DNA of 64,000 nucleotides from a virus. The stretch is taken from the IMG/VR virus record IMGVR_UViG_3300031251_000002, positions 102,451 through 166,450 of that record, one strand, 5' to 3'. Positions 1 through 62,786 of the stretch are shown here, piece by piece. The position numbers were made by a program, and so were the translations under genes. The first letter of the stretch is position 1, and every line of letters starts with the position of its first letter. A model generated the notes under the pieces. The model did no database searches. It was given only the letters and a program-made list of their open reading frames with translations, and was not told where the DNA came from.

Positions 1-1263
1 GCGGAAGACCGCCAGATTCGTGGTCAAGCAGTTAGCACTCAACAGGCGCTCGTTGAAGGTGACAAGGGAAAGACGACGGCTGTCTACTCGGCCATTGACG
101 AGATCAAGAAACCCTTCACGAAGGCAAACTGGTCATTCATCGAGGTCATGTCTGGACCGATGGATCTCGCCGGTCAGATGGCCGAGAAACTCGCTACCGG
201 CCTACAGACGGGGATCGACTTTGTTGAGAAGTTCGGCACCGCGCTGAACGATCTCATCACCCGCATGGAGGGTTGGGTTACCGAAAAGATTGGTGGCAAG
301 ACCGGTGAGGCAATCAACACCGGACTAGAGGTTCTCAAGGACAACAAGGTTGCGGCTGCTGGTCTTGGAGCTACGGCTCTCTGGAAGGTCGGCAAGGCTC
401 TTCTGAAAAAGGGAATGACGACTGCGGTAACCGCTGGAGCGGAAGGCGCTGCCGGATCCACCGGGGCCGGGGTTGGTGGGCTTGGCGTCCTTCCATTCAC
501 GGCGGCTGTCGTTGGCGGGCTGGCAGTCAATCACTCGATAAAGCAGCTTGGTAAGTCACTAGAGGAAGACTACGAGATTGAGGGTCGCGGGACTTTGCGC
601 GATGCAGAGACACGCGCAGGTGGGACGGTGGCCGAACTTCGCGCAAAACGTGCCGCAAAGTGGGGACTCACTGAACCCGCCACCGCAGTAGGAACCAATG
701 AAGAGGGCGGAGCGCTCAGCAGTCCTGCCGCTGCGCCGTACCGGGCAGCGATTGAGGCAGCGGCTCGGAAGTACGGGCTGAGTCCCGAGATTCAGGCTCG
801 GCAGCTTGAGGCTGAGTCTCATTTCGATCCGAACGCGGTTGGCTTTGATGGCAAGAGTCTTGGTCTCGCGCAGTTCCGCAACGACCGGACAGGGCGCGAC
901 AACTCCAAGAAGTACGGTCTTGTAACAGAGGCTGACTTCCGCGATCCCATCAAAAACATCGAAGCTAACGCTCACTACATGGCGGATCTGAAGAAGCGCT
1001 TTGGCGGCGATTACGCTAAGGCTCTCGTTGCCTACAACACCGGTCGAGGAGACATCAACAGCGAGTCTGGAACGAAGTATCTGGCAGCGGTTCTTGGAAA
1101 GCGCGGGTCGGCGCATGATCCGATGTTTACAGAAAGTCCGTCTCTCGTATCGGCCATTCGTCAACAGACGACCGTTATCAAGCAGCTTAACGACACACTG
1201 ACGACCAACCGGCACGATCCGAAAGCGCCCTTTAGGTCGCAGATTGCTACGGGAGCCTCCTAA
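1..1263 (+). CDS. Tail tape-measure protein, C-terminal part, with lytic transglycosylase domain (5' truncated by window)
   Basis: The frame is open from base 1 with no stop, so the gene begins upstream; the first internal Met (148) is not taken as the start. The visible part is 420 codons. A Gly/Ala-rich hydrophobic stretch, typical of tape-measure proteins that insert in the membrane, lies in its middle. The last third is an SLT (lysozyme-like) domain with the signature Glu in LEAESHFDPNAV, followed by GLAQF and the NTGRGDIN tail motif. Tape-measure proteins set tail length, and an SLT domain lets the incoming tail cut peptidoglycan. Its place just before baseplate genes fits. Its stop overlaps the start of the HNH gene by one base. 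Confidence 0.85.
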   Translation, partial: AEDRQIRGQAVSTQQALVEGDKGKTTAVYSAIDEIKKPFTKANWSFIEVMSGPMDLAGQMAEKLATGLQTGIDFVEKFGTALNDLITRMEGWVTEKIGGKTGEAINTGLEVLKDNKVAAAGLGATALWKVGKALLKKGMTTAVTAGAEGAAGSTGAGVGGLGVLPFTAAVVGGLAVNHSIKQLGKSLEEDYEIEGRGTLRDAETRAGGTVAELRAKRAAKWGLTEPATAVGTNEEGGALSSPAAAPYRAAIEAAARKYGLSPEIQARQLEAESHFDPNAVGFDGKSLGLAQFRNDRTGRDNSKKYGLVTEADFRDPIKNIEANAHYMADLKKRFGGDYAKALVAYNTGRGDINSESGTKYLAAVLGKRGSAHDPMFTESPSLVSAIRQQTTVIKQLNDTLTTNRHDPKAPFRSQIATGAS

Positions 1264-1745
1264 TGGCTAGAACTGAAGCGATGCTTCGCGCCGAGCGAAA
1301 GTATCATGCGAAAAATAGATCGAAGCGTAATGCTGAAAGTCAAAAGTATATGAAAGCCCGTCCTGAGTACGCCAAGAAGAAAATGGCGGAATGGAAGGAT
1401 GCCAATCCAGACTACTTCCATGCGGTTCAACGTCAACCCAAACATCGCTATAGGCGGCTTATTCATGCCGCTAAAAATCGTAACCTGTCGTTTAGCCTAA
1501 CATTTGAGCAGTATCTTTGTTTTACTGCGCGGCCATGCACCTACTGCGGCTTCAAGTTTGAAACCGCTGGTAGTGGCTTGGACCGGATAGATAACAGCAA
1601 GGGGTACGAAAACGACAATGTAACTTCCTGCTGTAAAGAGTGTAACTGGGCGCGTGGAGCTAGTTTCACCGCCGAAGAGATGCGATCTGTTCTTGGCCCT
1701 GCCATCAAACAGGTTAAAGAAGCAAGACAGGCTGGTGCGTCATAG
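1263..1745 (+). CDS. HNH homing-type endonuclease inserted in the tail operon
   Basis: 160 aa. A basic N-terminal half (KYHAKNRSKRNAESQKY and similar) precedes a zinc-binding HNH core: CTYCGFKF, then LDRIDNSKGY, then CCKECNWARG. Free-standing HNH nucleases spread by cutting DNA that lacks them. It sits between tape measure and baseplate genes, where related phages normally have none, and looks AT-richer than its neighbours. The first two codons (ATG GCT) and the bases after its end (ATA GCT TAC) suggest it was inserted at the start codon of the next gene (see findings). Whether it is active is unknown. Confidence 0.85.
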   Translation: MARTEAMLRAERKYHAKNRSKRNAESQKYMKARPEYAKKKMAEWKDANPDYFHAVQRQPKHRYRRLIHAAKNRNLSFSLTFEQYLCFTARPCTYCGFKFETAGSGLDRIDNSKGYENDNVTSCCKECNWARGASFTAEEMRSVLGPAIKQVKEARQAGAS

Positions 1746-1783
1746 CTTACTTCGACCGGCCTTTTAACAGCTTCATCTACGAC

Positions 1784-2251
1784 ATGGTAGATGGCAGCAG
1801 GATCTTCTTCCAGTTCATGCCGGAAGACATCAGTGACACGAAGCAGGCGACCTACACCGATTACCCGATCATCGGGCGGTCGATTCCATTGAAGGCATAC
1901 GAGGCTTCTCAGTCACGCATCATTACGTTGACGCTGAGTTTCTTCACCATGCCGGTCGAGGCTGAGTTTGCGCCGGATCCTTTCATCATCAAGACATGGA
2001 TGGACAAGCTCCGTTCGTTCACGTACCCCGATTACTCGCAGGGCGGGGTTAAGCCTCCGCATACGTTCATCATCAATATCGGCGGCTTCATCGCCATGGA
2101 AGCGGTGATGACGCAATACACGCTGAGTTACCCCTTCAAGGTCTGGACGCCGGGGATGATGCTTCCGTATGGCAGCACCATCAACCTGACCATGGCTGAG
2201 GTTCGGGACATTCCGCTCTCGACCGAAGAAGTAACGGCGGGGGCACAGTGA
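1784..2251 (+). CDS. Baseplate/tail protein of unknown family, start uncertain
   Basis: 155 aa from ATG 1784, but this start has no Shine-Dalgarno. The frame is open and protein-like back to 1718, reading AYFDRPFNSFIYD just before the Met. The natural N-terminus was therefore probably at 1742, where the codon is now ATA; this ATA overlaps the TAG stop of the HNH gene in the same way ATGA overlaps couple other genes here. Position between tape measure and gp53/hub genes suggests a tube-baseplate connector. I do not recognise a domain. Its stop overlaps the next GTG start. Confidence 0.6.
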   Translation: MVDGSRIFFQFMPEDISDTKQATYTDYPIIGRSIPLKAYEASQSRIITLTLSFFTMPVEAEFAPDPFIIKTWMDKLRSFTYPDYSQGGVKPPHTFIINIGGFIAMEAVMTQYTLSYPFKVWTPGMMLPYGSTINLTMAEVRDIPLSTEEVTAGAQ

Positions 2252-2601
2252 TCAAGACAAGCGAACTAACGCCGGTCTCCACGAAGGATGCGAAGATCCT
2301 TCAGCGGGACTTCTCTCGCTTCCGGGCGCAGACACTTTACCGCAACACGGATGGTCGCCTGTACTACGGCACCTTCAGCGCTCCGGACTTCCCTCAGGGG
2401 GCAAAGGATGTCTACCACACGGTAGTCGAAGGGCAAGATCAGCGGCTTGATCTGATCTCGTACTACTACTACCACACGGCTGAGTTGTGGTGGGTCATTG
2501 CGCTGGCTAACAACATCCTGTCGCCGTTCGATGACATTCACATCGGTGATCTGTTGCGAGTCCCGGACTTCAGCACTGTCATTGATGTCGTGGTGGTGTA
2601 G
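2248..2601 (+). CDS. gp53-like baseplate wedge protein
   Basis: 117 aa, starting at GTG in a GTGA overlap with the gene before. The central motif YYYYHTAELWWVIALANNI followed by PFDDIHIGDLLRVP matches the gp53/LysM-like baseplate wedge family seen in T4 and SPO1-like phages. In T4, gp53 joins the wedge to the hub. It is followed by the hub gene with a one-base stop/start overlap, the usual baseplate order. Confidence 0.75.
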   Translation: MIKTSELTPVSTKDAKILQRDFSRFRAQTLYRNTDGRLYYGTFSAPDFPQGAKDVYHTVVEGQDQRLDLISYYYYHTAELWWVIALANNILSPFDDIHIGDLLRVPDFSTVIDVVVV

Positions 2602-3893
2602 TGGCTCTCACACCGACTGATTACGCTCCTAACCCAAACGTTCCGTTCTTCAGCTTCAATGTTGGAGGTACGGACTTTGCGGATGAGGATCGCCCGCAGC
2701 ACCTGATGAGGTTCCAGATCACCATGAACACCAACACCATGGGGATGTGGACAGCCGTGTTTCTGGACCCAGAGTACACGACTATCGAGAAGACGCTGCT
2801 CGATAACTTCGACAAACCCATCACTATTCAGTGGGGTTGGCAGCATCCTAGCTCCCTCCGCTCGCCACAATTCAAGGTTTGGATCTCTGATTTCCAGCCA
2901 CGCTTTGTGATGGGTGGATCTGAGGTAACGATCAGCGGGTTTACGTTTGAGTACGCGAAGGGGGCAACACAGGACTCTCGCGTGTACCCGGACACCGTGA
3001 CCTACGGAAGCCACAAGGACTCGATGACGATCTCCGATATCGTCAACGACATCTGCACCCGGAATGACTGGAAGGCCGACATCCTAGGAACGAAGCCGAT
3101 TCCGGCTTTCACCGCGCTAGACTCGACGGACCTTCTTGGGGCCAAGTTTGTCCAGAACGGTTCGGATTTTGACTTCATCCAGTCGGTTCTCGCTCCCGCT
3201 GCTGTCTCGGAGCAAGATCACGGGGACTACTACACCTTCTTTGATCCGTACACCAGCACGTTGTCCTTCAAACCACGCACCAAGACCGACCCGGTTCAGA
3301 CTCTGATCTTCATTCAGGACAAGATGAATGAGATTACTAACCTTCAGCCAGACATTCTGATTGGTCTGTGGGTTGGACTAGTGGCCGCAAAGACGACCGC
3401 TCACGGACAGGCCCCAGAGAAGTCTGGTGATCTGCCGTGCGGGGTGTTCGACCTTCCCCCAAACACGCAAGCCGACACAGCAACCCAGTATGACGGAAGC
3501 AAGACCGGTAGTTGTCCGGAGGACATGCAGAACAAGCTCAAGGATCCATACTCTTGCGCGGCTGAGGTGGGCTACGCCCCGGCGGCGTCCAAAGAGATGC
3601 TGGAGAACCGGCAGAAGGCGGTTTGGAATGCCGGGGTGCAGTGCGCTGGTACGCAGGTTCAGGTAACCATCGTTGGCCATCCCGGAACGGACACGATTAA
3701 GTATCTGCCGATGCAGACCGTGGATCTCAGCGTGACCTCACCGCCACCCGATAAGCTGCCGTCTTACCTGAACGGCAACTACATGATCGTTGGAGTAACG
3801 CATCTGATTGATCAGCATGGCTACAAAACACAGTTGACTCTTACTAAGAACGCTTTCGATACAGTCGGCAACCTAGAGGTTACGAACGGCTAA
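2601..3893 (+). CDS. Baseplate hub protein, gp27 / late-control D-like
   Basis: 430 aa, GTG start overlapping the previous TAG. It sits directly before the spike gene, as gp27 precedes gp5-type spikes. The N-terminal part carries the FxITMN.. TMGMWTAVFLDP and TIQWGW patterns of hub beta-barrel domains. The middle has SMTISDIVNDIC and FVQNGSDFDFIQSVLAPAA, typical of phage GPD/gp27-like proteins. The role is to adapt the trimeric spike to the six-fold tail tube. Assignment rests on motif style and position. Confidence 0.65.
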   Translation: MALTPTDYAPNPNVPFFSFNVGGTDFADEDRPQHLMRFQITMNTNTMGMWTAVFLDPEYTTIEKTLLDNFDKPITIQWGWQHPSSLRSPQFKVWISDFQPRFVMGGSEVTISGFTFEYAKGATQDSRVYPDTVTYGSHKDSMTISDIVNDICTRNDWKADILGTKPIPAFTALDSTDLLGAKFVQNGSDFDFIQSVLAPAAVSEQDHGDYYTFFDPYTSTLSFKPRTKTDPVQTLIFIQDKMNEITNLQPDILIGLWVGLVAAKTTAHGQAPEKSGDLPCGVFDLPPNTQADTATQYDGSKTGSCPEDMQNKLKDPYSCAAEVGYAPAASKEMLENRQKAVWNAGVQCAGTQVQVTIVGHPGTDTIKYLPMQTVDLSVTSPPPDKLPSYLNGNYMIVGVTHLIDQHGYKTQLTLTKNAFDTVGNLEVTNG

Positions 3894-6283
3894 TGCTGCG
3901 CGACAACGAACATCCTGATAAGTACACCCAGCAGTCGGGTGTCTGGTCAGGTATCTATCGTGGGGTTGTTGAGTACATCAACGATCCCTTGATGCAGAAC
4001 CGGATCAAGGTCCGTGTTCCAGCGATCAACAAGACGGTTGACGTAGTTTCTACGGAAGCTCTGCCGTGGGCCGTCCTCATGACTTCCTTCGGAGGCGCGG
4101 GTGGCTTTGGAATCGTCGCCGTCCCGCCGGTTGGTTCAACCGTGTTCGTTGAGTACGAGGGTGGCAACCCGGCCTACCCGGTAGTTGTGGGAACGTGGTT
4201 CGGCGTTCCGAGCATTCCGCAGCCGATGGGCCGTATCAACGAGCAGCCCAAGGGCAAGATTTCGATGTCCCCGGACGAGTCCTCACCGTGGCATACCGAG
4301 CCGGGACCAGAGATTCCCGATGATTCCCAGCGTCGAGCTAACCTAGCGCCTGAAAACTACGTGTTCAAAACGCCTAAAGGCCATACGTTGATCATGGAAG
4401 ACCGGGACGAGGCCGAATACTTTGCGATCATAGATCGGGCAGGCCAGACGCTGCTGTTTGAGAGCGAGGTTCTGGAGAGCGAGAACATTGACAACGCCGC
4501 TCGCCGTGGGCTGAAACGGGCTAGCGAGAACGACGGTTTGGACGTTCCCAGCCAGATGCTGGGATCCTCGTCCAAGATCGAGATTACGGATGCGGCAGGG
4601 AACACGGTCCGTCTGTACGCCAAGAAGGACTCCGAACGGGTAATCCTGACCTCCGTAACCGATGAAAATACCCTAATTTTCGATCTGAGGGCCGCTGACG
4701 GCACTATCGACCTTCGGGGGGACTCCACAGAGGGGGAAACCCGTATCGGGCTTGATGCGGTCACTGGCAGCGCCTTCATGCGCTCCCGGACAGGGAACGA
4801 GCTTCGGGTGGACTCCCATGGTGGCGTTTCGATCAAATCTGACACTCTGACAGTCGAGGGCGACCTGTCCGTGAGCGGGGCCGTTTCCGCTGCCGGGGGT
4901 GTTACCTCTTCGGGAGCGCAGGGTGGCTCGCCGGGTAGCTTCAACCCCATCGCTATGCCTATTCCGCCTCCGGGACCGCCTCCTCCGGGTGAAGCGGACA
5001 TCGAAGCCATCATCACGGAGCGCTATCGGTTTGAGGATACGGTCAACGAGGAGGGCTATGTCCTACCGCTCGACTACACCGTGTTCTTTCACACGCCGCA
5101 CTTCACGTTAGAAAACCCGCCGGTTGTCCTGTCACGGAATGGCGTGACACAGGCTTTCAACCACAGCGCGACGATGTTCACTGATTTCAACGGTAACCTG
5201 TTCGATACGCAGGGTGCGTCAGTCGTGGATCCCCAGACCGGACCGGGAACCGGGTTGCGGATCGAGTGGTACAACGACGATACGTTTACGCTGCTGGCGG
5301 AAATTGATCTCATCGGACCGGTTAACTACAGCTTTGCCTCTCCTCCATATCCGGTTACTGGAATCACCTCGGATGTGTGGTCCGCCCGCCTGACAGGTTT
5401 CGTGAAGCCGCAGTATCAGGAGACGTATACGATCACCGCGACGGCAGGAGCCAACGATCTGGTTCGGATCTGGATCGACGGTGTTGAGCTTGCCCTGTCC
5501 TCGGGGCCGGTGTTTGTCGGCACCTTTATTGCGCCGGATTCTGGCGTCAAGCTGCCCATCAAAGTCGAGCATCGCAACGTGAGCGGAACCGGTGCCCTTC
5601 TACTTCAGTGGCAAAGCACCAGCTTGGCGCTGGAGACAATCCCTCTCCTCCGGATGTACACAGAGGGCAGTTCGGAGACAGTCGTTCGTGACCCGGCCTT
5701 CGGCTACTCGTTTGACGGGACCGACTGCTGGGTTGGCGCATTCCCCGGTTACCACGACGTTCAGATTGGCCATCTTGTGGTTGGCGTCAGCACGGGCTAT
5801 ACCCGAGATCCGACGTACTTCCCAAACGATACGCAGATCAGCTACAACCCGATTTCAAACACCTACCTTGGTGTCGAGCGCCTGAACCATAACGACGGGA
5901 CGCAGGATCCAAACTGGACGCTGGTCCTTCGTGGTGGTGCGCTGTTCACGATCATCGCTACGAACGCGGCCTCCTTCTTCGGAGCCAACTCGGCGGCATT
6001 GGAGGTCTACGTCTCCAACGATCCAGACGGGTCATTCTGGGTGAGCTTGCCTTCGGCTGGCGCGTTGTGGAATATCTCACCGACCGACGCCTCTGTGATT
6101 AGCGAGGTGATCATTGGCTCTACGCTTGCAGCCAAGCGGTTGCAGATGACGCCGCTCGACACGCAGTATTACCTGCTTACCGACAACCAGCACATCCGGA
6201 CGACGAAGCGGATGTCAGTAGACGAGTTCTTTGATGTGACATACGCCATCAAAGTAGGAACGGCGACAGGGGTTATCTCATGA
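3893..6283 (+). CDS. Baseplate central spike protein (gp5/VgrG-like OB fold) with PA14 domain
   Basis: 796 aa. Residues about 20-110 form a gp5/VgrG-type OB fold: GVVEYINDPLMQNRIKVRVPA, then PPVGSTVFVEYEGGNP and PVVVGTWFG. Residues about 130-340 are repetitive beta-rich sequence of the kind found in spike helices. A Pro-rich linker (PIPPPGPPPPGEAD) leads to a PA14-like domain near residues 440-590, with GLRIEWYND, WSARLTGFVKP and ALLLQWQS. PA14 domains commonly bind carbohydrate. A beta-rich C-terminal part follows. The protein probably punctures the envelope. A PA14 module on a spike is unusual and suggests surface-glycan contact. It ends in an ATGA overlap. Confidence 0.8.
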   Translation: MLRDNEHPDKYTQQSGVWSGIYRGVVEYINDPLMQNRIKVRVPAINKTVDVVSTEALPWAVLMTSFGGAGGFGIVAVPPVGSTVFVEYEGGNPAYPVVVGTWFGVPSIPQPMGRINEQPKGKISMSPDESSPWHTEPGPEIPDDSQRRANLAPENYVFKTPKGHTLIMEDRDEAEYFAIIDRAGQTLLFESEVLESENIDNAARRGLKRASENDGLDVPSQMLGSSSKIEITDAAGNTVRLYAKKDSERVILTSVTDENTLIFDLRAADGTIDLRGDSTEGETRIGLDAVTGSAFMRSRTGNELRVDSHGGVSIKSDTLTVEGDLSVSGAVSAAGGVTSSGAQGGSPGSFNPIAMPIPPPGPPPPGEADIEAIITERYRFEDTVNEEGYVLPLDYTVFFHTPHFTLENPPVVLSRNGVTQAFNHSATMFTDFNGNLFDTQGASVVDPQTGPGTGLRIEWYNDDTFTLLAEIDLIGPVNYSFASPPYPVTGITSDVWSARLTGFVKPQYQETYTITATAGANDLVRIWIDGVELALSSGPVFVGTFIAPDSGVKLPIKVEHRNVSGTGALLLQWQSTSLALETIPLLRMYTEGSSETVVRDPAFGYSFDGTDCWVGAFPGYHDVQIGHLVVGVSTGYTRDPTYFPNDTQISYNPISNTYLGVERLNHNDGTQDPNWTLVLRGGALFTIIATNAASFFGANSAALEVYVSNDPDGSFWVSLPSAGALWNISPTDASVISEVIIGSTLAAKRLQMTPLDTQYYLLTDNQHIRTTKRMSVDEFFDVTYAIKVGTATGVIS

Positions 6284-16568: not shown

Positions 16569-19500
16569 ATGGCAATTCCTGCAAGTCCTGATCTAATCAC
16601 CGTTCTGACCTCAGACGGTGATGTTGATCTATTTCTGCCGTCCGACATCTATCGGTATGACTTCGATAACCGTCCGCTTCGTAACCTCATTCTGAATGAC
16701 GAGAGTCTTCAGACCGGGGCGAACGAGGCGATTACAGAGACATTCAACTCCCGCTATCCGGGTGTTGACTGGCTGACAACGACAGGTGCGCGAGGCCCAT
16801 ACCTAAACCTTAAGGCTCGTCTTGACGACATGGATTCGTCCGTCAAGAAGAACATCTACAGCCTTAATCAAGAACTGGCTGCTCGCTACCGGAGTCAGTA
16901 CGCCTCGGGCTTCTTCCTGAAGACAGGAGAGGTCTACGATGCCAACGTATTTGACGTAGTGAGCGCGTCCAGCACCCACATCCCGTTCGGTGCGATCTGC
17001 GTCCCGGATGCGAACCCGAATGACGTTAGCTCCAACCTCACATCTTCGATTCCTGCCAACTCGGTTTGGATCTCGACTCATGAGGGAACACGCTCGCCCT
17101 TTGTGGCTAAGCCGATTGAGGCGATGCTGGGCGGTTTCCATGTCCGTCTGTTCAACGAGTCCGCGCATGGCGCAGCCACATCTGGCTTCACCAACGGCGT
17201 GTCGATCCTGTTCGATGCAGCCCCAAGCAGCGGTCAGCGCTTCGATCTCGCCTTCCTAGAGTTCTGGTTCGCCCCGGTTGACGGCGGGCTGGCCAACACA
17301 GGTGGCACCGACTCCTTCTACGAGTACGGCGCTGTAGACTCCAACGCTTCACGGTCTGTTGACCAGTCAGCCGCAGCGGTTCAGGGAACCGTGTGGTTCG
17401 ATCCGACTACGATTGGCAACTACATTCAGTTGCGCCATCGGATCCGCGTCGTATCGAACATTGATTACGTCAACAAGCCATTCGGCATCAACGATGCGTC
17501 TGTCGTTGCACAGGGCGGTGCCGGTTCCCCGGTCGGTGGAAAGACATTCGTCAACGGCCTGTCGGTAATCAGCGATCCGGCGATCTGGGTTGCTGGAAGT
17601 GGCTCAGGCGGCGACAAGACAGCCCTCGGCACCTCGGATGGGTACGTGTACGCGATCCCGATGATGATCGTTTCGCGTAAGAACACGGCTGCGTGGAGCC
17701 TCTCTAATCAGAACGGCGGTCAGGCATCCAACTTCGGTGCTGGCGGACGACCGGATGGTTACACGCACCAGAAGTTCTCGCGTGGCGACATTCTTGACAT
17801 CCGTCCTCGCGCTTTCATGGATCGTACGAGCCTGATTGACGCGACTGAGGAATCATTCGACAAGCTGCTTCGTGGACGCCTTTTGACGGCCATGAGCCAG
17901 ATGTCCTACGAAGCCGGTTCGGATCTGTTCACCCAGTCACACCTAGGAACGTTTACGGATCCAGTCGGGATGTACGGAACCGAGCTTCTGGAGATGAACC
18001 AGCTTGGTACGACGAACACCGCGCACACGCATCCGATTCGTGACTTTTTGGACAACGGTTCGCTCGCCGTCGCTAGGCCAACGGGTTTGCGTCGTGTCTT
18101 CAGCCCAAGTCGGGATACGCAGGTTCAACCGTTCCACATCAACTTGAATGGTGGAGCAACGACCAATGCAGATTTCGTGACATGGGCACCTCCGGTCATT
18201 ACCTTGTTTGCAGCCGGTGTTTCGGCTCTCGGTCCTGCGAACGCAGTGATCGAAAGCGTTCCCATCATGTCGTGGCGCACCACGCACCTGCCGGTTGTTA
18301 CCATCGGTAATTGGTCAGGAATCGGCACCAATCAAGCAACCGCGACGGTTGATACGGGCGGGGTTGGTTATGACGCGACCGACACGATTGACGGGGCAGT
18401 GAACATCCGCTGGCCACAGTCAACCGGTCTGCGCCACTCGCCTACGCGGATTGACTATCAAGACTGGACCGCTGGCGCGAACGGATCTGGCAGCATCACC
18501 CCGTCCATCCGGGCTACCGGGTTGAACGGCGGTACGGGTGGCGCTCAGGGTCCGACCGGCCTCTTTGTTTCAACAGACGGCCACATCTACGTCTGCGATA
18601 CTAGCAATCACCGGATTCAAATCTATGCTCCGCCCGCACCGACTGATACGACGTTCACCATCGTAGGTCAGTTCCCCGGCTCAATCGGCACGTTGCCGGG
18701 TCCGGGATCTGACAACGCGCATCTAAATTCCCCACAGGCTGTGGCGGTTGATGGTTCTGGCAACATCTATGTTGCTGACACCAACAATCATCGGGTTGTG
18801 AAGCTGTCCAATGCGCTTCCGCTACCGGCCTACGTGAGCCAGTTCGGCACTGGCAGCATTGGAACAGGAACGACACATCTCAACACCCCACAGGGCGTTG
18901 TGGCTGGCGTCTCCAACGTCTACATCTCTGACACGAACAACTATCGTGTAGTGAAGCTTGACGGTTCATTGACCTTCGTAGACCAGTTCGGCGTAACCGG
19001 TGTACCGGGTTCGGATGCGACCCACTGCTTGAGTCCGCAGCGCCTCACGACTGGCATTGGTGGTTCGGGTGGTCGCCTCATCGTGGCTGACCAGACCCGC
19101 GTTCTAGTTTTGAACTCTGCCCCCTCACCGATGACGCTTGATCGGGTTCTTGTGGGTGGTCAGGGCTATGCAGACGGCACAGCCATCACCGCTTTGAACG
19201 CCATCAAGTCCATGGCTATCGTAGAAGACAGCAGCGGTAACAAGTACGTCAGCGGCGGTGGAACCTCAGCCATCTTCAAATTCAACTCGTCGTGGGTTCT
19301 TCAGGCCAAGTTTGGTGCGGGTACGAATGACCTGACAAGCTTGTGGTACGGCCCTGCGGATCCTAATTTCAACACGCATTGCGGGCTTACCGGGAACATC
19401 GTTGTTGATTCGGCAAACGGCTTTGTCTACGTAGCTGACAACACCTACGGCGTCTCCCCCGGCTATGCGCGAGTCCTAGTTCTTAATATTGCTGACTTGA

Positions 19501-21467
19501 CGTATCACAATGAGCTTTTGCTTTCGACGCCGCGTCCGTGGATGGACGGCTCGTCAGTTCTCCCGAAGTCCCCGACCCCGAACTACGTGCAGCCGTCCTG
19601 CAACATCGCTATGGATCTGGTCAACACGGAGATTTACATCACTCTGGACACGCTGGCATGCGTAGAAAAGTGGGACACCTCCCCGAGCGCGGGCAACCCG
19701 AATCTCTGGGCATACGAGACCAAGTTTGGCAATGGAACGCACATCACGGAATGGCCGTACTATCAAGGCTGGCGCAGTCCTGCTGACGATGCTCACAGCT
19801 TCTCGTTCCCCAAGACGGTCGCTGTCTCTCCCGATGGTTCGACCCTGTACGTGGGCGATCAGAATTTCCGAGCGCTTAACGACGGCCACCACGCAAGCCG
19901 TATCGTTAGCCTGACATGCAACACGGTCCCGATGACCATGAACGCATGGTTTGGCGACCTGAACGTAGCTGACACCTCTTGCGACCTCGGCTCAACCACT
20001 GACACGCCGTACTTCCAGTCCGTCAGCGGGCTGGTGGCGCAGGGAACCCGCGTTTACGCAACCGATGCGTACGCGAACCCGCCGCTTCTCGTTGTTCTTG
20101 ATGTCGCTGGCTGGACGGGAGTGACCCGAGTTACCGCGCCGTTCAAGGAAGCGATTACAGACACGACATGGACCTCAGCCAGCATCCCGGCTAGCGGTGT
20201 AAGCAGCAACTACCTGACGGTCAACGGGGGCAACTACAACGCTGTTCTAGGCGACTCGACGGTGCTGTACATCAACCCCGGTTTCTCGACCCAGCGCTGG
20301 GCTATCGACAACAGTGTTGTAACCGGCGCAAGTGTCGATAACCCGTTACGCGCTTTCCTGACCCTCGGAACCGGGATCGCGGTGCAGAAGCCGATTCAAA
20401 GCACCCAGCCGTTTGTCGGTGTCAGCGGTGTCTGGTACGACGCTTCAGTTACCCCAAACCGACTGGTGATCTCGGATCAAGTGACCAACGAAGTCTATGT
20501 CGTTTCGGTAGACATTGACACAAACTCGCTCCCAGCAGACTTCACGCTTCTGGGCGAGGCGGGCACCGCAGGTGTCTCAGGCTTCGGCTTCGGTGGCTGG
20601 GCACATCCAACGTCGGTCGCCATGAAGCAGTTGAGTGGAATCGACTACTTCTACTACACGGACTTCTACAACGGCTCGCTCCAGCGGTCATCGCCGTACT
20701 TTGCCTTCATCGAACGCGGAACCGGGCGGATCGAATGTCTTCTGCCGCCACCGGCAGGAACGACACTCCGGGTCTACTCGCGGTTCACCCCCTATCAGGG
20801 TGTCTACGTGCGGCCTGACTTCCTTGGCAACTCCGCGCACAACTCGACGGCCTACGCCCAGTCCTTGTTTGCTTCGCGCCTAGTCGTGAAGCCGTACAAG
20901 ATGCTGGCAACGACCCTTGGCCGGGTAGGTATCGACTCCGGAAACCTGATCACTGAGACCGCCTACTCTTCGCCGCTATCCCATCTTCCGCTTCCTCTGG
21001 GAACGACGACGGAGTACGCATGGCAGGGGGATCGCCTTCAGTTCATCGGGGACATGATCTCTCCGTCCAGCCTAGTGGTCCTGCCGCTGGTTCAGCTTGG
21101 CTCACAGCCTCAGGAGTGGGACACCGACTCGGAGTCCTTCTACGAGCGCTCAACCCGCATCGGTCGGCTGGAGGATCCAATCCTTAACAACGGCCACGGT
21201 GGAGCGCCCAGCTACACGCTGGCATCCAACGAGTTCCCGGTTGTTCAGTCCTTCTCGCTGTCCAACGTGGTTCCACACATCAACTACACATGGGGCACGG
21301 TTGATTACTATGGTGAGCTTCTCTTGTTCGTTCGCGGTGACTTCAATCTAAGTAACAAGAACGTCGTTGGTCCTAGGATCAATCCGTTCGTTCAGACAAA
21401 CACTGTTGTTGAGCTATACCGGATGAATGGAAACCCCTTCACTCGGATGGTTGAGACTAGAGGCTAA
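16569..21467 (+). CDS. Giant fibre protein with NHL beta-propeller repeats
   Basis: 1632 aa, the largest gene in the window. Residues 1-500 look like a fibre adaptor (LFLPSDIYRYDFDNRPLRNL, THPIRDFLDNGS). From about residue 650 there is a run of NHL-type repeats: GLFVSTDGHIYVCDTSNHRI, AVAVDGSGNIYVADTNNHRV, VVAGVSNVYISDTNNYRVVK, then more divergent copies to about 1370. NHL repeats build beta-propellers that bind protein, RNA or glycans. The last 250 residues are a separate beta-rich domain. A role in receptor recognition is plausible from location at the end of the tail operon. Only 1 base separates it from the next gene's ATG. Confidence 0.65.
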   Translation: MAIPASPDLITVLTSDGDVDLFLPSDIYRYDFDNRPLRNLILNDESLQTGANEAITETFNSRYPGVDWLTTTGARGPYLNLKARLDDMDSSVKKNIYSLNQELAARYRSQYASGFFLKTGEVYDANVFDVVSASSTHIPFGAICVPDANPNDVSSNLTSSIPANSVWISTHEGTRSPFVAKPIEAMLGGFHVRLFNESAHGAATSGFTNGVSILFDAAPSSGQRFDLAFLEFWFAPVDGGLANTGGTDSFYEYGAVDSNASRSVDQSAAAVQGTVWFDPTTIGNYIQLRHRIRVVSNIDYVNKPFGINDASVVAQGGAGSPVGGKTFVNGLSVISDPAIWVAGSGSGGDKTALGTSDGYVYAIPMMIVSRKNTAAWSLSNQNGGQASNFGAGGRPDGYTHQKFSRGDILDIRPRAFMDRTSLIDATEESFDKLLRGRLLTAMSQMSYEAGSDLFTQSHLGTFTDPVGMYGTELLEMNQLGTTNTAHTHPIRDFLDNGSLAVARPTGLRRVFSPSRDTQVQPFHINLNGGATTNADFVTWAPPVITLFAAGVSALGPANAVIESVPIMSWRTTHLPVVTIGNWSGIGTNQATATVDTGGVGYDATDTIDGAVNIRWPQSTGLRHSPTRIDYQDWTAGANGSGSITPSIRATGLNGGTGGAQGPTGLFVSTDGHIYVCDTSNHRIQIYAPPAPTDTTFTIVGQFPGSIGTLPGPGSDNAHLNSPQAVAVDGSGNIYVADTNNHRVVKLSNALPLPAYVSQFGTGSIGTGTTHLNTPQGVVAGVSNVYISDTNNYRVVKLDGSLTFVDQFGVTGVPGSDATHCLSPQRLTTGIGGSGGRLIVADQTRVLVLNSAPSPMTLDRVLVGGQGYADGTAITALNAIKSMAIVEDSSGNKYVSGGGTSAIFKFNSSWVLQAKFGAGTNDLTSLWYGPADPNFNTHCGLTGNIVVDSANGFVYVADNTYGVSPGYARVLVLNIADLTYHNELLLSTPRPWMDGSSVLPKSPTPNYVQPSCNIAMDLVNTEIYITLDTLACVEKWDTSPSAGNPNLWAYETKFGNGTHITEWPYYQGWRSPADDAHSFSFPKTVAVSPDGSTLYVGDQNFRALNDGHHASRIVSLTCNTVPMTMNAWFGDLNVADTSCDLGSTTDTPYFQSVSGLVAQGTRVYATDAYANPPLLVVLDVAGWTGVTRVTAPFKEAITDTTWTSASIPASGVSSNYLTVNGGNYNAVLGDSTVLYINPGFSTQRWAIDNSVVTGASVDNPLRAFLTLGTGIAVQKPIQSTQPFVGVSGVWYDASVTPNRLVISDQVTNEVYVVSVDIDTNSLPADFTLLGEAGTAGVSGFGFGGWAHPTSVAMKQLSGIDYFYYTDFYNGSLQRSSPYFAFIERGTGRIECLLPPPAGTTLRVYSRFTPYQGVYVRPDFLGNSAHNSTAYAQSLFASRLVVKPYKMLATTLGRVGIDSGNLITETAYSSPLSHLPLPLGTTTEYAWQGDRLQFIGDMISPSSLVVLPLVQLGSQPQEWDTDSESFYERSTRIGRLEDPILNNGHGGAPSYTLASNEFPVVQSFSLSNVVPHINYTWGTVDYYGELLLFVRGDFNLSNKNVVGPRINPFVQTNTVVELYRMNGNPFTRMVETRG

Positions 21468-53043: not shown

Positions 53044-54063
53044 GTGGCACGAAAGGCAAAGCTGGTCATCCCGACTGAGGGGGCGATGATGCTTGATGAA
53101 ATCGAAAAGCGGTTGCTCCTCCCAGTCGGCTCTCTGGAGCTTCCGAAAAGCTTCACGCTCCCCCGGTACGATTCGGACGGCGTGATTCACACTGAAGAGG
53201 ATCCGAACTACCGGTCCAACCCGGAGTACGTTCCGGAAATTGATCCCACCTACGTGATGCAAGTCGAGCAAGCCACTTTGGCGCTGATCGCGTGTGAGTC
53301 TGGCGTTCCGACTCAGGCGTACGGGGTCTCGGGATCGGGCAAGACGACGTTCTGGGAGCAGTTCGCTGGGCGGCTGGGCCGCGAGCTTCGCGTCATCCAG
53401 TGCCTCAAGGGCATGACGGAAAAGACGCTGCTCGGCAAGCAGGATTTCGTGTCGGATGAAAAGGGAACGCGGACGCCGTTCGCGCTTGGCCCGCTTCCGT
53501 CCTACATTTCCTACCCCGGCGCTATCGTCCTGCTGGACGAGCAAGACGTTCTGGACGATGCGGTTGGTTTCGTCCTTCAGCCGCTGCTCAAGCGCGGCGG
53601 TGTTCTCCGCATCTCGGAGCTTGGTGACAACGGCAACATCTACCCGGCTGAGAATGTCTGGGTGGTCTCCACGACGAACACGGTCAACGGCGTGGACGAA
53701 ACTGGGACGTACACTCGTACGCTTCAAGACGCTTCGCAGGTTGACCGGTTTCTCTGTAAGATCCCGTTCCCGCCGCCCGACGAGCGGAAGATTCTCAAGG
53801 GCAAGTGGGGCGAGTTTCTTGCGGATGAAACGATTGATGCACTGGTTCGGTTCGCCCATGGGTTCAGGCAGTCGCCTGAGCTTCAGTCGAACCTGTTTTC
53901 CACGCGGCGTCTGGTCTTCATCGGGGAGATTGCTGCCAAGTACGGAAGCACGGAACTGGCGCTCCGTACCGCTCTGTTCAACGAGTTGCCCGCTGGTCCT
54001 CTTCGGGAGACGGCGCGCAACCTCGCCATTCATGAGAATCTCGCTCGGCCTGAGGTCGGGTAA
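53044..54063 (+). CDS. cobS: CobS/MoxR-like AAA+ ATPase
   Basis: 339 aa from GTG immediately after a stop. Walker A AYGVSGSGKTTFWEQFAG; Walker B IVLLDEQDVLDDA; sensor 1 VWVVSTTNTVNG; the arginine-finger region ASQVDRFLCKIPFPPPDE. CobS-type AAA+ proteins power a VWA partner, here the next gene, as in cobaltochelatase CobST and MoxR/VWA pairs. Many phages carry such a pair without the chelatase large subunit CobN, so metal insertion into cobalamin is unlikely to be its role. Confidence 0.8.
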   Translation: MARKAKLVIPTEGAMMLDEIEKRLLLPVGSLELPKSFTLPRYDSDGVIHTEEDPNYRSNPEYVPEIDPTYVMQVEQATLALIACESGVPTQAYGVSGSGKTTFWEQFAGRLGRELRVIQCLKGMTEKTLLGKQDFVSDEKGTRTPFALGPLPSYISYPGAIVLLDEQDVLDDAVGFVLQPLLKRGGVLRISELGDNGNIYPAENVWVVSTTNTVNGVDETGTYTRTLQDASQVDRFLCKIPFPPPDERKILKGKWGEFLADETIDALVRFAHGFRQSPELQSNLFSTRRLVFIGEIAAKYGSTELALRTALFNELPAGPLRETARNLAIHENLARPEVG

Positions 54064-54072
54064 GGAGTAACA

Positions 54073-56022
54073 ATGGATCTTCTGGAAAGCTTCGCAAAGA
54101 CCCTGACCGGGGATCCTTCGGTGTCGGTGGTGATGAAGGGTAAGGGCTGCTTTGTTGACCTTCAAACCAAGCAGATCAACATCCCGGCCATCTCCGTTCC
54201 GAACGGGACGAAAATTCCGCCGTACATCATCGGTTACTTGGATCATGAGGTCGGTCACCTGAAGTTCTCTACGGTTGCTGCGGAACGGCTGGTTCGGGAT
54301 GCCTTCAAGTCCGCTACGCCGTACGAACGAGCGGTGGCTGATTACGTTCACAATGTTCTCGATGACTGCCGTCAGGAGCCGCTGTTCATTCAGCGGTATC
54401 CGGGTGGTCGGTACTACCTTGGGATCGCGGCAGTGTTCGACATTGAGAACACGATTACCCGCGAAAGTGCGGAGGGAGTCGCCAGCAACAAGGCGCTGAC
54501 GGACCCGCGAGTTCTGGCGAGCATCGGTTACCTGCAAGGCTTCGCTCGGGCGTACTACGAGACCGGGCATCCGATGCCTGAGTCGGTTACCAGAGAGGCG
54601 CTGTCGTTGGCCGGGAAGTGGTTTCCTGAGTACAAGAAGTTGCCCCTCATGTCTCCGATGAAGGTCGCGGAACTGACCATTGAGTTTGTCAAAGCCAACC
54701 CGTACACGCCGCCCCCGCAACCGGCGGGTCAGCCCAAAAGGCAAGAGGGTGGCGAGGGTAGCGGTGAGGAGTCCGGTCCCGGTGGCCCTCCGGTTCCCGG
54801 CGAGGGCAAGGCTCAAGGTAAGGCCGAGGGCAAGGGCGCGGGTGACGAGGCCGAGGGATCGGGCGGAGGCGGGGTCGGCGGTTCGATGGCTGATCTCTCT
54901 GACGAGAGCGGGATTGAGTTCCTGAGCGGTCTCGGTCACGCGGGTAAGAAAGCTGAGTTTGATAAGCAGGTTGCTGAGATTCAGAAGCCTAACGTGCTGA
55001 CCGCTGACCGTGGGAGCAAAGCGGTTTACCCGCCCAGAACAACGGAATGGGACAAGGTTTTCAACTTCACTGCTGCCGTGTCGAAGGTGCTGGCCAGCGC
55101 TCCTGATGTTCTCAAGCAGGTGGTTGCCAGTACCGTCAAGTTCGATCAAACGACGAGCAACGTTCTCGGTCCTGTCCAGCGCAAGTTTCTCGGGGCGCAC
55201 AAGTCCCGTAAGACCGTGCGTGACTTCGATGGGTACGAGTTCTCGGATGACGCTTTCGTGTCGGTTGCTTCAAAAAATTTCCGTGGTCTGTATCACGACC
55301 GCGACAACAAGAAAACCATCAAGGGTACGGCGGTCACGCTTCTGCTCGACGTTTCCGGGTCCATGACTTCTGCTGGATCCGCTACGCTGTTCGGAGAATC
55401 CTCCAACGCAGCTACGGCTTCCATCTGGTCGGTCTGGGCCATGGCTTCGATTCTTCGCTGCCCGTTTGAGATTCTCGCCTACAGCACCGGGGACACCCCG
55501 GAAGATGTTCGGCTTGTGGCGGGGAAGGAGAGCGTGGGCTGGGTGCCGTTCAGGCGTACGGAGTCGGTGATTACTCACGTTATCAAGACCTTCGATGAGA
55601 AGTGGGGTCAGCAGCACAAGAACGCGCTGGTTGCCCTTCTCGGCGGCGGCGGGAGCGATCACAGCCCCAAGCTTTCGGTTCCCTCGACTCGAAACCTCTT
55701 GGTTGGTACGGCGCGTCAAATCTGGCGTGGCAACTGCGACGGTGATAACTTCTTGGTTGCAAGGGAGCGCATGATGCGCCGTCCCGAGGAGCGCAAGGTA
55801 ATCATCGTGGTCAGCGACGGTCAGCCGGTCGGCGCGTGTGTTCCGGACGAACACCCCAAGAGCTTCCTTCGGTATGAGATTGACCGCGCTATCAAGGCGG
55901 GCATCAAGGTTGTCGGTATCGGACTTGGCCGCGAGGGCGGGTACGTCAAACGGTTCTACCCTGTGTATCGGCATCTTATGAACCCTGCCGGGTTGGGTAA
56001 GGCGCTGATGGAAACGCTGTAA
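54073..56022 (+). CDS. cobT: CobT-like VWA protein, partner of the AAA+ ATPase
   Basis: 649 aa, SD AAGGAG. N-terminal helical domain contains GYLDHEVGHLKFST, an HExxH-like segment (HEVGH), and VHNVLDDCRQE. Residues 215-270 are a Gly/Glu/Lys-rich low-complexity linker. The C-terminal VWA has the MIDAS motif TLLLDVSGSMTSAGS, later VIIVVSDGQPVG. The HEVGH/DDC pattern is shared with CobT and other phage CobT-like proteins. With the ATPase it may remodel a phage or host complex; the target is unknown. Confidence 0.75.
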   Translation: MDLLESFAKTLTGDPSVSVVMKGKGCFVDLQTKQINIPAISVPNGTKIPPYIIGYLDHEVGHLKFSTVAAERLVRDAFKSATPYERAVADYVHNVLDDCRQEPLFIQRYPGGRYYLGIAAVFDIENTITRESAEGVASNKALTDPRVLASIGYLQGFARAYYETGHPMPESVTREALSLAGKWFPEYKKLPLMSPMKVAELTIEFVKANPYTPPPQPAGQPKRQEGGEGSGEESGPGGPPVPGEGKAQGKAEGKGAGDEAEGSGGGGVGGSMADLSDESGIEFLSGLGHAGKKAEFDKQVAEIQKPNVLTADRGSKAVYPPRTTEWDKVFNFTAAVSKVLASAPDVLKQVVASTVKFDQTTSNVLGPVQRKFLGAHKSRKTVRDFDGYEFSDDAFVSVASKNFRGLYHDRDNKKTIKGTAVTLLLDVSGSMTSAGSATLFGESSNAATASIWSVWAMASILRCPFEILAYSTGDTPEDVRLVAGKESVGWVPFRRTESVITHVIKTFDEKWGQQHKNALVALLGGGGSDHSPKLSVPSTRNLLVGTARQIWRGNCDGDNFLVARERMMRRPEERKVIIVVSDGQPVGACVPDEHPKSFLRYEIDRAIKAGIKVVGIGLGREGGYVKRFYPVYRHLMNPAGLGKALMETL

Positions 56023-62552: not shown

Positions 62553-62626
62553 GCCTTCGTAGCCAAGTAGTTAGGCACCGGTCTGCAAAACCGGTTACGT
62601 TGGTGCAATTCCAACCGAAGGCTCCA
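62553..62626 (+). tRNA. tRNA-Cys (GCA)
   Basis: Acceptor GCCTTCG/CGAAGGC, discriminator T (U73 is a Cys identity base), CCA encoded. Anticodon stem-loop CCGGT-CTGCAAA-ACCGG gives GCA. T loop TGCAATT. Confidence 0.85.
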
Positions 62627-62639
62627 TTGAAATCGGTCT

Positions 62640-62706
62640 GGGGGAAGAGACGTTCGACTCGTCAAGAGGGGCTTGCTCCTCCTTAGTGTAACGGCAGCAC
62701 TCCCCC
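62640..62706 (+). ncRNA. Circularly permuted tRNA-like element
   Basis: Order of parts: anticodon-stem 3' strand GGGGGA (62640-62645); T arm GACG-TTCGACT-CGTC (62649-62663) with canonical T loop; acceptor 3' strand GAGGGG (62666-62671); linker CTTG; acceptor 5' strand CTCCTC (62676-62681); D arm AGTG-TAACGGCAG-CACT; anticodon-stem 5' strand TCCCCC (62701-62706). All five pairings of a cloverleaf exist, but the 3' half precedes the 5' half. The D-arm stretch is 14/17 identical to that of the tRNA-Trp here. No CCA is encoded in the linker. It may be a functional permuted tRNA, a processed structural RNA, or the remnant of a deletion between two tandem tRNAs. Confidence 0.6.
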
Positions 62707-62709
62707 GTG

Positions 62710-62786
62710 CAAATGACAGCCGTAAGGCGCGGGTAAAACGTAGGCGTCACGACACGCCAACCCTTCAAAGAAGGGGCCGTCATTTG
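62710..62786 (+). ncRNA. Second cloverleaf-like RNA following the permuted element
   Basis: CAAATGAC (62710-62717) pairs perfectly with GTCATTTG (62779-62786). Three hairpins lie inside: GCC-GTAA-GGC (GNRA tetraloop), GGCGT-CACGAC-ACGCC and CCCTTC-AAA-GAAGGG. The loops are not those of a tRNA. A competing helix CCCGTGC/GCGCGGG links it to the end of the preceding element, so the two may form one folding unit. Confidence 0.6.

What the first reader, a model, noticed from the sequence alone, without database searches (positions are those of the whole stretch)
62640..62706. Circularly permuted tRNA-like gene inside a phage tRNA array
The T arm (GACG-TTCGACT-CGTC) and the acceptor 3' strand come before the acceptor 5' strand and a D arm that matches the local tRNA-Trp D arm at 14 of 17 positions. 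GGGGGA and TCCCCC, at the two ends, supply the anticodon stem. All cloverleaf helices are present, with the acceptor ends joined by only CTTG. Permuted tRNAs are known from some algae and archaea, where splicing enzymes mature them; bacteria lack that endonuclease. If real, the phage must use another route, or uses the RNA for something else. The alternative is a deletion that fused two tandem tRNAs; the lack of a CCA and the very short linker need explaining in that case.
Basis: partly seen in the sequence, partly recalled or inferred. Interest (0 to 1): 0.85.

Follow-up and report, generated by a model that had tools for sequence, protein, structure and literature searches.

The report
Closed tRNA mimic in phage array
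The odd back-to-front tRNA in this phage is real in the sequence, but it looks like the tRNA-imitating part of a bacterial "Y RNA" (a known small RNA built in exactly that order) that has lost its usual protein-binding stem, rather than a true scrambled tRNA gene.

Summary
Window 62640-62706 folds as a cloverleaf in permuted order, and this is its minimum-energy fold. The order is anticodon-stem 3' strand, T arm, acceptor hairpin capped by CTTG, D arm, anticodon-stem 5' strand.

The reading as a permuted tRNA gene is not favoured. This order is the architecture of the tRNA-like domain of bacterial Y RNAs (YrlA, RF02553). Many lie in records that also encode Ro60. The window element shares a rare signature with one sub-group: "AAG" plus an A49/A65 mismatch, found in 4 of 46 modules with the same D arm and in 0 of 4,295 ordinary phage tRNAs. 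It lacks a clear anticodon loop, a bulge-helix-bulge motif and a CCA end.

It differs from YrlA in three ways. There is no Ro60-binding stem and no room for one. No Ro60 gene was found in the 166-kb genome, which carries end repeats. Rfam's YrlA model does not match it. Similar stem-less modules sit between tRNA genes in a few other phages. Best reading: a stand-alone tRNA mimic, a compact variant of YrlA. A decayed relic remains possible.

The parts
62640..62645 (+). 5' strand of the basal (anticodon-like) stem, GGGGGA
   Evidence: pairs with 62701-62706 in the MFE fold; no further stem beyond it (duplex z = +0.5, +0.1)
62645..62648 (+). short variable region AAG plus A49, which faces A65 (62664): signature of a Y-RNA sub-group
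   Evidence: AAG + A.A in 4/46 closed modules with a GTGT D arm and 0/4,295 ordinary tRNAs of phage contigs
62649..62663 (+). T arm GACG-TTCGACT-CGTC with canonical T loop (T54 T55 C56 A58)
   Evidence: MFE; R2 match 62645-62700, 44.8 bits (not specific, see report)
62664..62683 (+). closed acceptor-like hairpin: 8 + 4 + 8 geometry, CUUG tetraloop at 62672-62675, one A.C mismatch; no CCA
   Evidence: 6 bp in MFE; 7-8-bp stems with a 4-base loop are the commonest geometry of the class; same 20-base length as L049
62684..62700 (+). T8, A9 and D arm GTGT-AACGGCA-GCAC with G18 G19
   Evidence: identical D-arm type in 46 other closed modules
62701..62706 (+). 3' strand of the basal stem, TCCCCC
62553..62626 (+). 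upstream tRNA-Cys(GCA); its 3' CCA ends 13 bases before the element, leaving no room for a 5' Y-stem strand
   Evidence: ARAGORN
62710..62786 (+). adjoining highly structured spacer (8-bp closing stem, four hairpins), 3 bases after the element; relation unknown
   Evidence: fold z = -3.3, 0/200 shuffles as stable

Best explanation
The element is a compact, stand-alone tRNA-like module of the YrlA (bacterial Y RNA) kind. It looks permuted because YrlA tRNA-like domains are built that way: the strand enters where the anticodon would be, makes the T arm, then an acceptor arm closed by a loop, then the D arm, and leaves. Proposed working: (1) it is transcribed within the tRNA polycistron and released by processing of its neighbours (inferred); (2) it folds into a tRNA elbow with intact D-loop/T-loop contact bases (sequence shown, folding inferred); (3) the acceptor end is capped by a CUUG tetraloop and lacks CCA, so it cannot be charged or decode (inferred from sequence); (4) with no Ro60-binding stem and no Ro60 gene, it would act on its own as a decoy or docking site for proteins that recognise the tRNA elbow, such as tRNA-modifying enzymes, PNPase or tRNA-cutting nucleases (inferred from YrlA).
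For: Rfam's YrlA alignment has the same order of arms and a closed acceptor hairpin. Elements found by permuted-fold scanning of phage contigs coincide with YrlA hits (L083, L051, L014, L003). Their records often encode Ro60/TROVE: 6/10, 12/23, 30/50. The window element carries the AAG + A49/A65 signature of a sub-group whose members mostly have Y-stem-like flanks; A/A at 49/65 occurs in 9/46 such modules against 2/4,295 ordinary tRNAs. Its acceptor hairpin has the standard 8-bp-plus-tetraloop geometry. Stem-less modules between tRNAs exist elsewhere: L042 (two, 3-4 bases upstream of tRNAs), L290 (3 bases after tRNA-Arg, 6 before tRNA-Tyr, matching YrlA positions 23-89 only, 37.7 bits) and L109. 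The nearest module by sequence is L076, whose record encodes Ro60. Published work: YrlA is a stem plus a tRNA-like domain, a DusA/TruB substrate that binds PNPase (PMC8394870), and its tRNA-like domain has been proposed as a competitive inhibitor of an anticodon nuclease (PMC7790460).
Against: Rfam's YrlA model gives no match to it even at E <= 10. Model R1, from other modules, scores it only 12.3 bits, below some ordinary tRNA junctions. Model R2 scores it 44.8 bits, but tandem-tRNA junctions with the same D arm reach about 42-47. Fold energy is unremarkable. No close relative of the phage was found, so conservation of this very element is untested. The A15-G48 position departs from the tRNA R15:Y48 rule. 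Function is entirely inferred.
Confidence: 0.6

Rival explanations
1. Relic: two tandem tRNA genes (perhaps copies of one tRNA) lost their outer halves by deletion, leaving a 3' half joined to a 5' half. The pairing is inherited and the RNA does nothing. A variant of this is a decayed Y RNA that lost its stem.
For: It lies in an array of about 30 tRNAs. Spacing and sequence resemble a tRNA junction, and CM scores do not separate it from junctions. The T arm (GACG-TTCGACT-CGTC) resembles that of the phage's own tRNA-Gln(CUG). A second, more degenerate element of the same layout with a broken T loop (TTAAACT) lies at L123:408-510.
Against: Only 9/1,833 real junctions show this much permuted pairing and 1/1,117 show both helices. 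The AAG + A.A signature is absent from 4,295 ordinary tRNAs. The junction carries no CCA, and its centre is a stable G(CUUG)C tetraloop within an 8+4+8 hairpin.
Confidence: 0.22
2. A true circularly permuted tRNA gene. The transcript's ends are joined in the anticodon loop by the phage's RtcB ligase, and the acceptor is then opened by RNase P and RNase Z and given CCA.
For: The genome encodes a full-length RtcB (G000:C1:35689-36792, E 1.7e-118). RtcB also occurs in two of the other records with stem-less modules (L042, L109), against 6/62 records tested with Y-stem-type modules. Taking all seven loop bases from the 5' half would give GUGCAAA (U33, anticodon GCA). Known permuted tRNAs can have linkers as short as one base (PMC3978253).
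Against: The RtcB association is post hoc, 3 of 7 stem-less records, with small numbers. No bulge-helix-bulge motif forms. R15:Y48 is not met. The acceptor is sealed by a stable tetraloop. A tRNA-Cys(GCA) is already 13 bases upstream. Across the other stem-less modules the flanks mostly extend the stem and do not supply a consistent U33. No bacterial tRNA splicing endonuclease is known.
Confidence: 0.06
3. Chance: unrelated tRNA fragments that happen to fold this way.
For: RNAfold z is only -1.1; within-segment shuffles give P about 0.013; an array with many spacers offers many chances.
Against: Pooled-shuffle P = 4.5e-4, about 0.1-0.5% of real junctions, plus the independent AAG + A.A signature.
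Confidence: 0.07

Closest known systems
YrlA, bacterial Y RNA (Rfam RF02553)
   Same: Order T arm, closed acceptor-like hairpin, D arm within a basal stem; canonical T and D loops; no CCA; no anticodon; frequent in phage contigs and near tRNA genes
   Different: No long Ro60-binding Y stem and no room for one; no TROVE/Ro60 gene in this genome; no match to the Rfam model; basal stem only 6 bp
Circularly permuted tRNA genes (six unicellular algae and Thermofilum pendens, PMC3978253)
   Same: 3' half precedes 5' half; all four cloverleaf helices; short linker; CCA not encoded in the algal genes
   Different: No bulge-helix-bulge motif, no clear anticodon loop, R15:Y48 broken, acceptor capped by a stable tetraloop; a bacterial virus
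Permuted tmRNA (RF04321)
   Same: A tRNA-like domain with rearranged halves in bacteria
   Different: No tmRNA match at this locus; no tag frame; no CCA acceptor
Ordinary tandem phage tRNAs
   Same: Array context; T-loop to D-arm spacing close to a zero-spacer tandem pair
   Different: Neither half belongs to an intact tRNA; halves pair with each other; Y-RNA-type T-arm signature

Membership tests
YrlA (RF02553) | tRNA-like domain in the order T arm, closed acceptor hairpin, D arm | tested here: met
   fold compared with YrlA alignments
YrlA (RF02553) | long basal Y stem pairing 5' and 3' ends (binds Ro60) | tested here: not met
   no duplex beyond 6-7 bp (z +0.5, +0.1); tRNA-Cys ends 13 bases upstream
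YrlA (RF02553) | Ro60/TROVE gene in the same genome | tested here: not met
   no hit at E <= 10 in the 166-kb record, which has identical ends of 123 bases
YrlA (RF02553) | match to the Rfam covariance model | tested here: not met
   none at E <= 10 at this locus; the genome-wide search hits only record positions 912-4378, over ordinary tRNAs
YrlA sub-group with GTGT D arm | AAG variable region and A49/A65 mismatch | tested here: met
   (post hoc; some members related)
YrlA (RF02553) | binding to PNPase, modification by DusA/TruB | not testable with these tools
   biochemical; reported for YrlA in PMC8394870
Circularly permuted tRNA gene | 3' half upstream of 5' half with all helices | tested here: met
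Circularly permuted tRNA gene | bulge-helix-bulge motif at the joined ends | tested here: not met
   folds with flanks show no such motif
Circularly permuted tRNA gene | consensus tRNA bases U8, R15:Y48, G18G19, U33, U54U55C56 | tested here: inconclusive
   U8, G18G19 and UUC met; R15:Y48 not met (A15/G48); U33 only if all or most of the loop comes from the 5' half
Circularly permuted tRNA gene | circular RNA intermediate | not testable with these tools
   needs RNA-seq; an RtcB ligase is present
Tandem tRNA relic | intact tandem tRNAs at this place in close relatives | not tested
   no close relative found

The most novel reading that the evidence does not exclude
A bacterial virus carries a true circularly permuted tRNA gene whose ends are joined in the anticodon loop by the phage's own RtcB ligase, the first such gene outside algae and archaea.
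Probability: 0.05. Interest if true: 0.9.

Novelty: new variant of a known kind. Interest (0 to 1): 0.42.

Why it matters
If the compact modules are functional, phages use the tRNA-mimic half of Y RNAs without Ro60, which would separate the two jobs of these poorly understood RNAs and offer a natural minimal tRNA decoy to test against host tRNA-cutting defences. It also shows that closed-acceptor modules are common in phage genomes and largely invisible to Rfam's YrlA cut-off, and that 'permuted tRNA' sightings in bacteria should be checked against YrlA first.

Tried and rejected
Rfam scans at the locus: no family. A search for close relatives of the phage with three proteins found none; DNA polymerase relatives in named phages are about 27% identical. 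Covariance models R1 and R2 were tried as membership tests and rejected as discriminators, because tandem-tRNA junctions score in the same range. A second permuted-looking element in the same genome (L123:408-510, 18.2 bits) was considered as support. Its T loop lacks C56 and its fold is no better than shuffles, so it is not used. RtcB co-occurrence with stem-less modules looked striking at first (RtcB in 2 of the 3 stem-less records and 0 of the 15 others, plus this genome) but weakened when the set was enlarged (6/62 records tested with Y-stem-type modules carry RtcB). T4-type RNA ligase families: none. A CobT-like VWA protein in the window (54073-56022) was checked as a possible Ro60 relative and is not one. 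Pair counts on A3 and A4 are partly circular, since A3 members were chosen by structure.

Full report
What is there. The window is the last 64 kb of a 166,450-bp IMG/VR virus record. The record's first and last bases overlap by 123 identical bases, so the genome is probably complete, and the tRNA array in the window (62.2-63.2 kb) continues at the record's start (L123; 20 more ARAGORN tRNAs). The phage has T4-like tail genes (judged by eye from the ORFs) and no close relative in the collections searched. Between tRNA-Cys (ends 62626) and tRNA-Pro (starts 62807) lies the reported element, 62640-62706, followed 3 bases later by a separate strongly structured spacer (62710-62786, z = -3.3).

Observation. 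RNAfold returns the permuted cloverleaf as the best and the centroid structure. The energy itself is ordinary (z = -1.1). Specific tests are better: 1 of 1,117 real tandem-tRNA junctions shows both helices, pooled shuffles give 4.5e-4, and a stricter within-segment shuffle 0.013. In a second test 9 of 1,833 junctions pass, three of them repeats of identical tRNAs. So the fold is unlikely to be chance, though not overwhelmingly so taken alone.

What it resembles. I wrote a scanner for permuted tRNA folds and ran it on phage contigs fetched with a T-loop/D-arm pattern. It returned many perfect permuted cloverleafs with short acceptor loops. These are not tRNA genes: at several loci Rfam's YrlA (Y RNA-like) model matches (L083, L051, L014, L003; 37-42 bits, below its 69-bit cut-off). 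Its alignment shows the same order: Y stem, T arm, closed acceptor-like hairpin, D arm, Y stem. Most have long flanking stems, and many of their records encode Ro60: 6/10, 12/23, 30/50. Published work describes YrlA as a basal stem that holds the Ro60 relative Rsr plus a tRNA-like domain with D, T and acceptor arms, modified by DusA and TruB and binding PNPase (PMC8394870). Further pattern scans raised the count to 217 closed-acceptor modules outside intact tRNAs, typically 7-8 bp with a 4-base loop. Part of that preference was imposed by the patterns used.

Does the window element belong there? The strongest sign is a signature I did not select for. It has a three-base variable region AAG and an A49/A65 mismatch beside a 4-bp T stem. 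A/A at that position occurs in 9 of 46 closed modules with the same GTGT D arm, and in 2 of 4,295 ordinary tRNAs of the same viral contigs; with AAG the counts are 4/46 and 0/4,295. One AAG + A.A case appeared in a looser tRNA set that included bacterial loci. Some of the module matches are related phages, so the counts are not independent, but L049, L147, L189, L195, L043 and L159 come from different contigs and mostly have Y-stem-like flanks. The element and the L049 module also have the same length between T stem and D arm (20 bases, 8+4+8). Against this, the Rfam model finds nothing here. My two covariance models do not separate the element from tandem-tRNA junctions: R1 gives it 12.3 bits; R2 gives 44.8 bits against 42-47 for some junctions.

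How it differs from YrlA. There is no Y stem and no room for one on the 5' side. No TROVE gene is detectable in the genome, and no other convincing closed module was found elsewhere in it. The element is therefore at most the tRNA-like half of a Y RNA. It is not alone. L290 has a module 3 bases after tRNA-Arg and 6 before tRNA-Tyr that matches only YrlA positions 23-89. L042 has two modules 3-4 bases upstream of tRNAs in a 527-kb phage without TROVE. L109 has one 6 bases upstream of tRNA-Thr, in a record that does encode TROVE. L542, L558 and L608 are weaker cases.

Why not a permuted tRNA. Known permuted tRNAs keep U8, R15:Y48, G18G19, U33 and UUC and form a bulge-helix-bulge motif at the joined ends (PMC3978253). 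Here R15:Y48 is broken, no such motif forms, the acceptor is sealed by a G(CUUG)C loop, and no anticodon loop is evident. In the other stem-less modules the flanks usually extend the stem instead of supplying U33. However, the genome encodes a full-length RtcB ligase, as do two of the other stem-less records. In the enlarged set RtcB occurs in 3 of 7 stem-less records and 6 of 62 records with Y-stem-type modules. This is post hoc, small and possibly confounded, so I keep the permuted-tRNA reading only as a low-probability rival.

Proposed mechanism, with status of each step. Co-transcription with the tRNA array and release by processing of neighbours: inferred from position. Folding into a tRNA elbow: inferred from the conserved T-loop, D-loop and position-8 bases. 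Inability to be charged: follows from the capped acceptor without CCA. Action as a decoy or docking site for elbow-binding proteins: inference from YrlA, whose tRNA-like domain has been proposed as a competitive inhibitor of an anticodon nuclease (PMC7790460). A non-functional relic, of tandem tRNAs or of a Y RNA, remains the main alternative at about one in five.

Noticed in passing
window 62710-62786: Strongly structured spacer three bases after the element: 8-bp closing stem with four hairpins, z = -3.3; its topology loosely recalls a long-variable-arm tRNA but with no tRNA loops and no Rfam match.
   Followed up: partly
L123:408-510: A second permuted-looking element in the same array. Its acceptor hairpin and a D-loop insertion are capped by nearly identical 14-base loops (AGACTTTCATTAGG / AGACTTTAATTAGG), found nowhere else in the genome with up to 2 mismatches. 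The T loop lacks C56.
   Followed up: partly
L123:734-811 and L123:1310-1392: Two more tRNA-sized, stably folded spacers between tRNA genes (z = -2.5 and -3.7), no Rfam match at their places.
   Followed up: partly
G000:C1:35689-36792 (outside the window): Full-length RtcB RNA ligase encoded by this 166-kb phage.
   Followed up: partly
IMG/VR contigs L001-L674: Closed-acceptor Y-RNA-type modules are very common in phage contigs (217 in pattern-selected loci), often several per genome, and the matches checked score 34-48 bits, far below Rfam's 69-bit YrlA cut-off.
   Followed up: partly
window 53044-56022: Adjacent AAA_5/CbbQ-like ATPase and CobT-like VWA protein genes.
   Followed up: partly
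window 18741-18826: ARAGORN calls a tRNA-Val inside the 1,632-aa ORF 16569-21467; probably a false positive.
   Followed up: no
L123 about 4340-4680, 4865-5230 and 5780-6120: Small ORFs between tRNA genes that look by eye like HNH endonucleases inserted in the array.
   Followed up: no
L049:1-152 (minus strand): Partial match to the GOLLD giant RNA (53.8 bits, E 3e-11) beside a phage tRNA array.
   Followed up: no
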